Origin: Gammaproteobacteria bacterium
GTDB taxonomy: Bacteria; Pseudomonadota; Gammaproteobacteria; Xanthomonadales; Marinicellaceae
Direction of reading: 5' to 3'
NCBI GenBank assembly: GCA_024280395.1
Contig: JAJRQG010000104.1
Location: forward strand, 1-64,000
DNA: 64,000 nt
Positions 37,401 to 39,470 of this stretch are shown one piece after another (position 1 is the stretch's first letter; every line of letters starts with the position of its first letter). The notes below the pieces were generated by a model. The model was not told where the DNA came from, searched no databases, and worked only from the letters and a program-made list of their open reading frames with translations. The position numbers and the translations under genes are program-made.

Positions 37401-37966
37401 AACGCAAAGAGTATTTAGACCAACAAAATGATGATTTGGTTGAAGCCCTTGAAACATTGGAAAAAGCCATCCGTAAAATTGACAAAGAAACCCGCACCTT
37501 GTTTAAAGATACCTTCGAAGCGATAAACACCAATATCAAGATACTCTTTCCCAAATTATTTGGTGGTGGACACTGTTTCCTTGAGTTGACCAGTGATGAC
37601 TTGCTAACCACTGGTGTATCTATCATGGCTAGACCTCCTGGCAAACGCATATCCAATATTCAACTGTTATCTGGTGGTGAAAAAGCCTTAACCGCTGTGG
37701 CCATGGTGTTTTCTATCTTTAATCTTAATCCTGCACCATTTTGTATGCTGGATGAGGTTGATGCACCGTTGGATGATGCCAATGTTGGGCGATTTTCCAA
37801 AATGGTCAAAGAAATGTCAGATAAAGTCCAGTTCTTGTTTGTGACTCACAACAAAGTGACCATGGAAATAGCCAATCAACTTAATGGTGTCACTATGCGT
37901 GAGCCTGGAGTTTCAAGGTTAGTCAGTGTTGATTTAGCTGAAGCAAAAAACATGATAAATGATTGA
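34469..37966 (+). CDS. smc: Chromosome segregation protein SMC
   Basis: [20 protein letters not shown]...[20 protein letters not shown], long coiled coils, hinge, [19 protein letters not shown]. Confidence 0.97.
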   Translation: [1165 protein letters not shown]

Positions 37967-38456
37967 GAATGATGAGATATTTTTATCTGAAATCACACAA
38001 GAAGACAGAAATTTTTACTGTGAAATTTATACCAATAATCAATTGATGGAGTTTGTTGTTGACCCATTAAGTATCGAATCTGCCAATAAAAGTTTCAACA
38101 TCACTTTCGATAAAATGTCAGCTACACCCAAAAAGTTACTTCTGTTTGTCATAAAATCTAAAAAAGGCCAGAAGAGATTGGGTGTTATCGGCTTGCGTTG
38201 GAACCAGCATCATCCGCAACACGTAGAAATTGGCATTATAGTCTTGGAAAAATTTCAGAGACAAGGCGTAGGTCATGCGACAAAATCCTTGCTCATTGAA
38301 CATGCCTTTAATAATCTAAATGTCATTAAAATTGTCGCGATTTGTGATAAAGATAATGTCGTTGCAATTTGTGCAAACAAAAAACTGGGTTTTAAATGTG
38401 TTGAGAAATCTATTTTAAATAACAAAAGTAAAACAATATGGGAAAAGACAAAATAA
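37959..38456 (+). CDS. GNAT family N-acetyltransferase (RimJ/RimL-like), putative borosin-cassette member
   Basis: VEIGIIVLEKFQRQGVGHATKSLLIEHAF; overlaps smc by 8 nt and the downstream methyltransferase by 19 nt. Confidence 0.85.
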   Translation: MIENDEIFLSEITQEDRNFYCEIYTNNQLMEFVVDPLSIESANKSFNITFDKMSATPKKLLLFVIKSKKGQKRLGVIGLRWNQHHPQHVEIGIIVLEKFQRQGVGHATKSLLIEHAFNNLNVIKIVAICDKDNVVAICANKKLGFKCVEKSILNNKSKTIWEKTK

Positions 38457-39226
38457 AAAAAGGCAGTTTGGTCAATGTGGGTCTAGGCATGACATTGGGT
38501 GCGCATATTACACCGATTTCTAGAAGTTACATTGAAAAAGCCGATGTGGTGTTTGTCGCCACTTCAAATAATATTGTTGAACAGTGGGTTGAGGGCATGA
38601 ATTCCGATGTGCGCAGTTTGCAACAATACTATCAAGAGGGTACTTCTCGTATGAAAACCTATCGCAAAATGGTAGAAGTCATGATGGAAGAAGTCCGTTT
38701 GGGTAAACAAGTGTGTGGTGCATTTTATGGCCATCCAGGGGTATTTGCTTGGCCGCCTCATGAGTCAATCAAGCAGGCTAGAAAGGAAGGCTATCGGGCA
38801 CACATGGAAGCCGGTATCTCAGCTGAAGATTGCCTGTATGCTGATTTGGGTATTGATCCAGGGAAATATGGTTGTACACATTTAGAAGCCAGTCAATATA
38901 TGTTCCGCAATAAAATTATTGATCCATCAAGCTATGTAATTTTGTGGCAGGTTGCTATAGCAGGAGACAAAACATTAACAAAATTTTCCACCTCGGCTGA
39001 TTATAAACAAGTGTTGGTGGATATGTTATTGGAAACTTATCCTGAAGATTTTGAAGTGATTTTGTACGAATGTGCGGTTTTGCCAATTGAACAGGTTCAT
39101 ATTGAGGCAGTTATGTTGAAAAAATTGGCCAATGCAAGCATGAGTTTGAAAACCACCTTAGTCATCCCTCCATTAAATCAAAAAAGCCTTAATCTGGATA
39201 CCATTAAAAAAATAGAAAAACTCTAG
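38438..39226 (+). CDS. Putative borosin-type peptide backbone alpha-N-methyltransferase (tetrapyrrole/corrin methylase fold), stand-alone (split) form
   Basis: Translation motifs LVNVGLGMTLG, QQYYQEGTSRMKTYRKM, GAFYGHPGVFAWPPHESIKQARKEGYRAHMEAGISAEDCLYADLGIDPGKYGCTHLEAS, VIPPLNQKSLNLDTIKKIEKL; these match recalled OphMA-type borosin methyltransferase motifs. Confidence 0.88.
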   Translation: MGKDKIKKGSLVNVGLGMTLGAHITPISRSYIEKADVVFVATSNNIVEQWVEGMNSDVRSLQQYYQEGTSRMKTYRKMVEVMMEEVRLGKQVCGAFYGHPGVFAWPPHESIKQARKEGYRAHMEAGISAEDCLYADLGIDPGKYGCTHLEASQYMFRNKIIDPSSYVILWQVAIAGDKTLTKFSTSADYKQVLVDMLLETYPEDFEVILYECAVLPIEQVHIEAVMLKKLANASMSLKTTLVIPPLNQKSLNLDTIKKIEKL

Positions 39227-39275
39227 TCGCTATGTTACTATAGTTTTTCAAGTGAAATCAAAAAGGAATAAAAGT

Positions 39276-39470
39276 ATGAACGCTATGATTAAAACTTTAG
39301 AGGAAATCGGCCAATCTGTATCATTAAAACAATTTGATAATTCATTAGAGTTATTAAAAAGTGTGAATGTGTCAGATGGTATTATTGGGGATTTGAAAAA
39401 ATATACGATTGAATATGTGTGTATAGTCATGCCTGAAGATGATGAACCTGATGAAGAAATAAACATTTAA
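39276..39470 (+). CDS. Putative split-borosin precursor peptide (64 aa)
   Basis: MNAMIKTLEEIGQSVSLKQFDNSLELLKSVNVSDGIIGDLKKYTIEYVCIVMPEDDEPDEEINI; AAAAAGGAATAAAAGT-ATG Shine-Dalgarno; 49 nt downstream of the methyltransferase. Confidence 0.8.
   Translation: MNAMIKTLEEIGQSVSLKQFDNSLELLKSVNVSDGIIGDLKKYTIEYVCIVMPEDDEPDEEINI

What the first reader, a model, noticed from the sequence alone, without database searches (positions are those of the whole stretch)
37959..39470. Putative split borosin (backbone alpha-N-methylated RiPP) locus downstream of smc
Seen in sequence: a GNAT gene, a tetrapyrrole-methylase-fold methyltransferase and a 64-aa peptide, all same strand, with 8-nt and 19-nt overlaps and a 49-nt gap. 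The methyltransferase has YYQEGTSRMKTYRKM and FYGHPGVF...EGYRAHM..GISAEDCLYADLGIDP...CTHLEAS. From memory, fungal OphMA has YYDNGKSRLNTYTQM and FYGHPGVF...EGYRARM..GVSAEDCLFADLCIDP...CLTYEAS, so the match extends over the catalytic Tyr/Arg region. The enzyme ends right after NLDTIKKIEKL, with no fused clasp or core. That is the architecture of split borosins such as Shewanella SonM/SonA. This combination beside smc, in this lineage, appears undescribed to me.
Basis: partly seen in the sequence, partly recalled or inferred. Interest (0 to 1): 0.95.

Follow-up and report, generated by a model that had tools for sequence, protein, structure and literature searches.

The report
Methylated-peptide genes wired to c-di-GMP receptors
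A bacterium carries a small gene set that very probably makes a backbone-methylated peptide, and in this organism and across many relatives, including close relatives of the best-studied example of such peptides, the genes sit beside one particular membrane sensor that makes the messenger c-di-GMP, which points to a testable job (signalling) for a peptide class whose role in bacteria was unknown.

Summary
The methyltransferase is 48% identical to SonM, has all its catalytic residues, and hits only borosin enzymes in the PDB. The 64-aa peptide belongs to a conserved family whose profile finds SonA, the SonM substrate, as its top PDB hits. As a borosin it is a new member of a known kind; the smc neighbour is incidental.

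This TPR-sensor family lies beside the methyltransferase in 111 of 118 loci and nowhere in 557 kb of distant flank. It also follows sonM-sonA in four Shewanella-type loci. Peptides far from the methyltransferase still sit in GNAT-peptide-cyclase units. Peptide and sensor co-vary inside genomes (0 of 2000 swaps). One genome fuses cyclase and methyltransferase. Some loci swap the GGDEF for a histidine kinase.

Best explanation: the methylated peptide is a ligand or signal for this receptor. Export, cleavage, methylation and binding are not shown. No paper in the searchable library links borosins with diguanylate cyclases; the main genome-mining papers were not readable.

The parts
34469..37966 (+). 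smc, chromosome segregation ATPase; upstream neighbour, not part of the module
   Evidence: TIGR02168 1045 bits; adjacent to the module only in a few same-genus genomes
37959..38456 (+). GNAT N-acetyltransferase, part of the module; putative second tailoring enzyme
   Evidence: PF13302 E 3e-19; near the MT in 52 of 73 loci; also in [GNAT-peptide-cyclase] units remote from any MT
38438..39226 (+). Split-borosin alpha-N-methyltransferase (SonM homologue, 262 aa)
   Evidence: SonM E 4e-69, 48% identity; catalytic residues invariant in 81/81
38630..38662 (+). Side-clamp region Y65..R71..Y75 (= SonM Y58, R67, Y71)
   Evidence: alignments; clamp span 7 residues in 81/81, 3 shorter than SonM
39276..39470 (+). 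Borosin precursor peptide (64 aa): BBD-like leader about residues 1-46, hydrophobic Cys-containing core about 47-53, acidic tail
   Evidence: family profile A2 hits SonA entries, E 3e-5; tblastn; AF2 helices 3-14, 23-29, 34-47
39414..39437 (+). Predicted core segment YVCIVMPE (residues 47-54)
   Evidence: C49 nearly invariant in the family; the segment is duplicated as VCCMMLPATVCCMMLPGM in L093 and similarly in L100 and L090. Methylation sites inferred, not shown
39479..41266 (+). Receptor-type diguanylate cyclase: signal peptide, periplasmic TPR domain, one TM, GGEEF domain (TTG start, or ATG at 39488)
   Evidence: GGDEF E 2e-34; AF2 pLDDT 93.6; SP/TM/GGEEF survey of the family
39569..40639 (+). 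Periplasmic TPR sensor domain with invariant Cys185 and Cys215
   Evidence: alignments A3 and A4; sensor profile survey

Best explanation
The operon encodes a split borosin made by a SonM-type methyltransferase acting on a separate BBD-leader peptide, probably also tailored by the GNAT. The mature methylated peptide is the ligand or signal of the adjacent transmembrane receptor, whose periplasmic TPR domain senses it and whose cytoplasmic GGEEF domain then changes c-di-GMP output. Shown by sequence: enzyme family, catalytic residues, leader family, operon, receptor architecture, near-universal linkage and pairwise co-variation. Inferred: methylation of the core (around V48-M52), cleavage and export, binding to the TPR domain, and the direction of the effect on c-di-GMP.
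For: MT is SonM-like and the peptide family is SonA-like. A GGDEF gene starts within 3 kb downstream on the same strand in 73/73 loci, peptide in 72/73; about 0.01-0.02 is expected from the GGDEF densities (computed). The TPR-sensor family is within 4 kb of the MT in 111/118 loci and absent from 557 kb farther away. Sensor and MT co-occur in 61 relatives: 38/38 with MT, 3/23 without; the window genome has 33 GGDEFs but one such sensor, one MT, one peptide. The same gene follows sonM-sonA in Shewanella-type loci L230-L233. Peptides remote from the MT are in [GNAT-peptide-cyclase] units (L193-L195, L197). Within-genome swap test 0/2000. TPR-GGDEF-MT fusion L150. Histidine-kinase outputs behind the same sensor in L140, L141, L243, L249. 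GGEEF intact in 82/82.
Against: No exporter or protease gene is conserved in the cluster, and the peptide has no signal peptide, so how it reaches a periplasmic TPR domain is unexplained. The leader co-varies with the sensor more strongly than the short core does, so the contact could involve the leader, or the covariation could partly reflect co-duplication of linked genes. Seven MT loci lack the sensor. A few genomes have a sensor without a detected MT (G024, G027, G032). The window cyclase shows no RxxD inhibitory site (read from its sequence). No experiment was possible.
Confidence: 0.62

Rival explanations
1. Ordinary borosin natural product (antimicrobial, metallophore or other). The TPR-GGDEF protein is a co-inherited regulator that senses some other cue, or a producer-response switch, and does not bind the peptide.
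For: Linkage alone does not prove binding; bacterial borosins had no final product assigned in 2021 (PMC8429565); the core co-varies only weakly with the sensor.
Against: The unit that duplicates is peptide plus receptor with the MT in trans; pairing inside genomes is non-random; no conserved transporter, immunity gene or biosynthetic gene other than GNAT.
Confidence: 0.2
2. The peptide is not secreted but is a cytosolic or membrane-bound protein regulator of the cyclase; methylation tunes a protein-protein contact, for instance with the BBD leader.
For: No signal peptide; leader-sensor covariation exceeds core-sensor covariation; in L150 the MT is fused to the cytoplasmic side of the receptor.
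Against: The sensor that co-varies is predicted periplasmic (signal peptide-like start in 64/82, one TM before GGDEF in 73/82, none between); cores are duplicated in some precursors, as expected for released products.
Confidence: 0.13
3. The enzyme is an ordinary tetrapyrrole or RsmI-type methylase and the peptide is a spurious ORF.
For: Pfam assigns only the generic TP_methylase fold; the single peptide has no database hit.
Against: Borosin-specific PDB hits only; borosin catalytic residues invariant; conserved peptide family that recovers SonA.
Confidence: 0.02

Closest known systems
SonM/SonA, type IV split borosin of Shewanella oneidensis (PMC8429565)
   Same: Stand-alone alpha-N-methyltransferase (48% identity, all tested catalytic residues) plus a separate BBD-leader peptide; Shewanella-type relatives also have the TPR-GGDEF gene directly after sonA
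   Different: Side clamp 3 residues shorter; Marinicella-type peptides lack about 11 residues of the leader and have a Cys-containing core with an acidic tail; a GNAT gene is in the unit
OphMA / dbOphMA / MroMA, fused fungal borosins
   Same: Same methyltransferase family
   Different: Here no clasp or core is fused to the enzyme
Diguanylate cyclases with solved GGDEF domains such as SadC, GcbC, DgcB
   Same: GGEEF catalytic domain, matched in fold and sequence
   Different: Sensor is a periplasmic TPR domain of a family found almost only beside borosin MTs
Peptide quorum sensing with TPR receptors (RRNPP) or membrane kinases (Agr type), from general knowledge
   Same: Peptide gene and TPR or membrane receptor gene paired as a cassette
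   Different: Gram-negative, backbone-methylated peptide, receptor is mostly a membrane diguanylate cyclase; signalling not demonstrated

Membership tests
Split (type IV) borosin | Discrete alpha-N-methyltransferase of about 260 aa without fused clasp or core | tested here: met
   262 aa, SonM E 4e-69 over residues 9-256
Split (type IV) borosin | Active-site residues of SonM (Y58, R67, Y71, Y93) and bottom-lock F99/W166 | tested here: met
   Y65, R71, Y75, Y97, F103, W170; invariant in 81 sequences
Split (type IV) borosin | Separately encoded adjacent precursor peptide | tested here: met
   64-aa gene 49 nt downstream; family in 72/73 loci
Split (type IV) borosin | Borosin-binding-domain (LigA-like) leader | tested here: met
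   Family profile A2: the top 7 PDB hits are SonA entries, E 3e-5 to 1e-4. A single-sequence search found none and Foldseek lists SonA only at insignificant E, so it holds at family level
Split (type IV) borosin | Backbone N-methylation of the core peptide | not testable with these tools
   needs co-expression and LC-MS/MS
Split (type IV) borosin | Dimer-of-heterodimers enzyme-precursor complex | not testable with these tools
   no complex prediction available here
Diguanylate cyclase receptor | Intact GG(D/E)EF active site | tested here: met
   GGEEF in the window and in 82/82 peptide-linked homologues
Diguanylate cyclase receptor | Extracytoplasmic sensor, one TM, cytoplasmic GGDEF | tested here: met
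   Hydropathy: TM before GGDEF in 73/82, signal peptide-like start in 64/82, none between; model with TPR superhelix and long linking helix. Topology is predicted only
Peptide quorum sensing or pheromone system | Secreted mature peptide recognised by its cognate receptor | not testable with these tools
   Only genetic linkage and covariation
Peptide quorum sensing or pheromone system | Dedicated export or processing gene in the cluster | tested here: not met
   No conserved transporter or protease gene in the neighbourhoods; pepsin-like family PF00026 not found in four genomes, but that control did not ring

The most novel reading that the evidence does not exclude
Backbone-methylated ribosomal peptides, including that of the Shewanella model SonM/SonA, are dedicated ligands of a family of transmembrane TPR receptors whose outputs are mostly diguanylate cyclases and sometimes histidine kinases: a peptide-signalling system of Gram-negative bacteria built on borosins.
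Probability: 0.5. Interest if true: 0.93.

Novelty: new variant of a known kind. Interest (0 to 1): 0.85.

Why it matters
Split borosins are widespread in bacteria, and when they were first described (PMC8429565) none was tied to a final product. A conserved physical and evolutionary link to one receptor family, also present next to sonM-sonA in close Shewanella relatives, gives a concrete hypothesis that can be tested in existing laboratory systems: the peptides act through c-di-GMP. If right, it would supply a function for a whole RiPP class and a modified-peptide ligand for a diguanylate cyclase, and the peptide-receptor pairs would make a natural specificity library.

Tried and rejected
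Single-sequence searches of the 64-aa peptide in PDB, Pfam, NCBIfam and PHROGs found nothing; only the family profile worked. Foldseek of the peptide model lists several SonA chains among its few hits but none is significant. The smc neighbourhood was considered as meaningful and rejected: it is limited to a few same-genus genomes. Shewasin-like peptidase (PF00026): not found, but the control genomes did not ring either, so absence is not shown. No Rfam element in the window, so no known c-di-GMP riboswitch there. No terminator-like site was found between 37900 and the end of the cyclase gene; the one in the scanned region lies beyond it at 41372. Literature search for borosin plus diguanylate cyclase: none in the library; two look-ups by DOI for the borosin genome-mining papers failed. 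The first class-wide search with SonM did not include Shewanella; a second, centred on another order, did. The core-only covariation signal is weak, so no claim is made that the core alone sets specificity.

Full report
OBSERVATION. The three genes exist as described. GNAT 37959-38456, methyltransferase (MT) 38438-39226 and a 64-aa peptide 39276-39470 form a tight run after smc, with overlaps of 8 and 19 nt and a 49-nt gap; AAGGA about 11 nt before the peptide ATG supports that start. Eight nt after the peptide stop another gene begins (TTG 39479, or ATG 39488, to 41266), which the finding left out. No terminator-like site was found between 37900 and the end of that gene.

WHAT THE ENZYME IS. 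In the PDB the MT hits only borosin enzymes: SonM at E 4e-69, then dbOphM, OphMA and MroMA. Identity to SonM is 48%. By the alignment, MT Y65, R71, Y75, Y97, F103, W170, Q171 and E150 correspond to SonM Y58, R67, Y71, Y93, F99, W166, Q167 and E146, whose roles in catalysis and in the clamps are described in PMC8429565. The Y, R, Y, Y, F and W positions are invariant in all 81 homologues, and Q171 and E150 in 80. The side clamp spans 7 residues in all 81, three shorter than in SonM. Tetrapyrrole or RsmI-type methylases are not competitive.

WHAT THE PEPTIDE IS. Alone it matches nothing. Iterated searching around related MTs found a family of 104 ORFs (two or three of them doubtful) in 81 loci, close to all MTs but a few. 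The profile of 50 members finds SonA as its first seven PDB hits, E 3e-5 to 1e-4, so the leader is the borosin-binding domain; Marinicella-type peptides lack about 11 residues of it. After the leader comes a short hydrophobic segment with a nearly invariant Cys and then an acidic tail. Some Rhodanobacter precursors carry the segment twice, e.g. VCCMMLPATVCCMMLPGM in L093, which marks it as the probable core. In SonA, L63 and I65 are methylated (PMC8429565); by analogy the sites here should fall in V48-M52. This is inference.

WHERE IT OCCURS. The genome is a Marinicella-like gammaproteobacterium (nearest named relatives). Close MTs are in Marinicella, Rheinheimera, Alkalimonas, Rhodanobacter, Dyella, Pleionea and others. 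In an even sample of the class 9 of 369 genomes have an MT at E 1e-20; in the order around G405, 94 of 395. The smc neighbour is seen only in a few same-genus genomes.

THE PART THAT WAS MISSED. The gene after the peptide encodes a signal peptide-like start, a periplasmic TPR domain, one membrane helix and a GGEEF diguanylate cyclase domain (AlphaFold mean pLDDT 93.6; closest solved folds are GGDEF domains). Two Cys in the periplasmic domain (185, 215) are invariant in 79 homologues; they lie on neighbouring helices and may form a disulfide (inference). In 73 of 73 loci with enough contig a GGDEF gene starts within 3 kb downstream of the MT on the same strand. The chance for any one gene is about 0.01-0.02, from 16-52 GGDEF domains per genome. 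With a profile of the TPR sensor alone, 111 of 118 loci have a member within 4 kb, and none occurs in 557 kb lying more than 6 kb away. These loci are related by descent, so the number is not a probability, but they span many genera and several families.

PRESENCE AND ABSENCE. In 61 relatives, the sensor family (E at most 1e-30) is present in 38 of 38 genomes with an MT and in 3 of 23 without (Fisher 3e-13, uncorrected for phylogeny). The peptide family: 36 both, 2 MT only, 1 peptide only, 22 neither. The window's own genome has 33 GGDEF domains, but only one with this sensor, one MT and one peptide.

PAIRING. Many genomes have two or three peptide-cyclase pairs for one MT. Several pairs lie away from the MT, in the order GNAT, peptide, cyclase (L193, L194, L195, L197). 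So the heritable unit is peptide plus receptor, usually with the GNAT, and the MT can act in trans. Over 92 pairs, peptide and sensor distances correlate at r 0.80, or 0.63 after removing the GGDEF-domain distance; shuffling partners inside the 17 multi-pair genomes never reached the observed value (0 of 2000). The leader carries more of this signal than the short core, so it is not shown that the core is the recognised part, and co-duplication of linked genes contributes.

FUSION AND OUTPUT SWAP. In L150 the TPR-TM-GGDEF receptor and the MT are one 859-aa polypeptide, with a LigA-like peptide just upstream. In L140, L141, L243 and L249 the sensor is joined to histidine kinases, three of them hybrid kinases with receiver domains. 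One sensor with different outputs is typical of ligand receptors.

SHEWANELLA. Genomes G783 and G809 encode SonM at 98-99% identity. There, and in two more distant loci of the same group, the gene directly after the SonA homologue is the same TPR-GGDEF protein (L230-L233; Pfam GGDEF 4e-39 and TPR). Thus the model split borosin very probably has this partner too; the MR-1 genome itself was not read here.

HOW IT MOST LIKELY WORKS. Shown by sequence: a SonM-type enzyme, a BBD-leader substrate and a receptor-type cyclase with an intact active site, inherited together. Inferred: the enzyme methylates the core, the GNAT may acetylate it, the product is released and reaches the periplasm, the TPR domain binds it, and the cyclase changes c-di-GMP. 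The weakest step is the route to the periplasm: no exporter or protease is conserved in the cluster. Rivals are a natural product with a co-inherited regulator, or a non-secreted peptide acting on the cyclase directly.

NOVELTY. Split borosins in bacteria and their types are known (PMC8429565, PMC11395268, PMC11285071). In the library searched, no paper contains both borosin and diguanylate cyclase. The main genome-mining papers could not be read, so prior mention of the GGDEF neighbour cannot be excluded. As a borosin this is a new member; as a borosin-receptor module it is, to the extent that could be checked, undescribed.

Noticed in passing
L230-L233 (unnamed Shewanella-type genomes G783, G809, G670, G598): The gene directly after the SonA homologue is the same TPR-GGDEF receptor; in L230 a Na/H-exchanger-type gene follows it.
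   Followed up: yes
L150:4288-6867: Single 859-aa protein TPR-TM-GGDEF-borosin methyltransferase with a LigA/BBD-like peptide gene just upstream.
   Followed up: yes
L093, L100, L090, L117: Precursor peptides with a duplicated Cys-rich core segment (e.g. VCCMMLPATVCCMMLPGM).
   Followed up: partly
L250:600-2516: Borosin-type methyltransferase domain inside a 638-aa protein (residues 228-473) with unknown flanking regions; no TPR sensor found nearby.
   Followed up: no
L142-L146, L149, L245: More divergent MTs without the TPR receptor beside them; L142, L144, L146 and L149 have short peptides next door, so these may be other split-borosin types.
   Followed up: partly
window 30937-33945 and 17263-18174: Two further GGDEF proteins in the window: one with a Reg_prop beta-propeller sensor, one of 303 aa; no borosin peptide was found beside them.
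   Followed up: no
L245:5862-7331: 489-aa ORF with many copies of a GYAPDAAIIK-like repeat beside a borosin MT.
   Followed up: no
L141:11780-12197 (minus strand): Tandem near-identical 67-aa peptides with secretion-signal-like starts, ending PTHTVCILLPQLCN, about 1.6 kb past the TPR hybrid kinase in a borosin locus.
   Followed up: no
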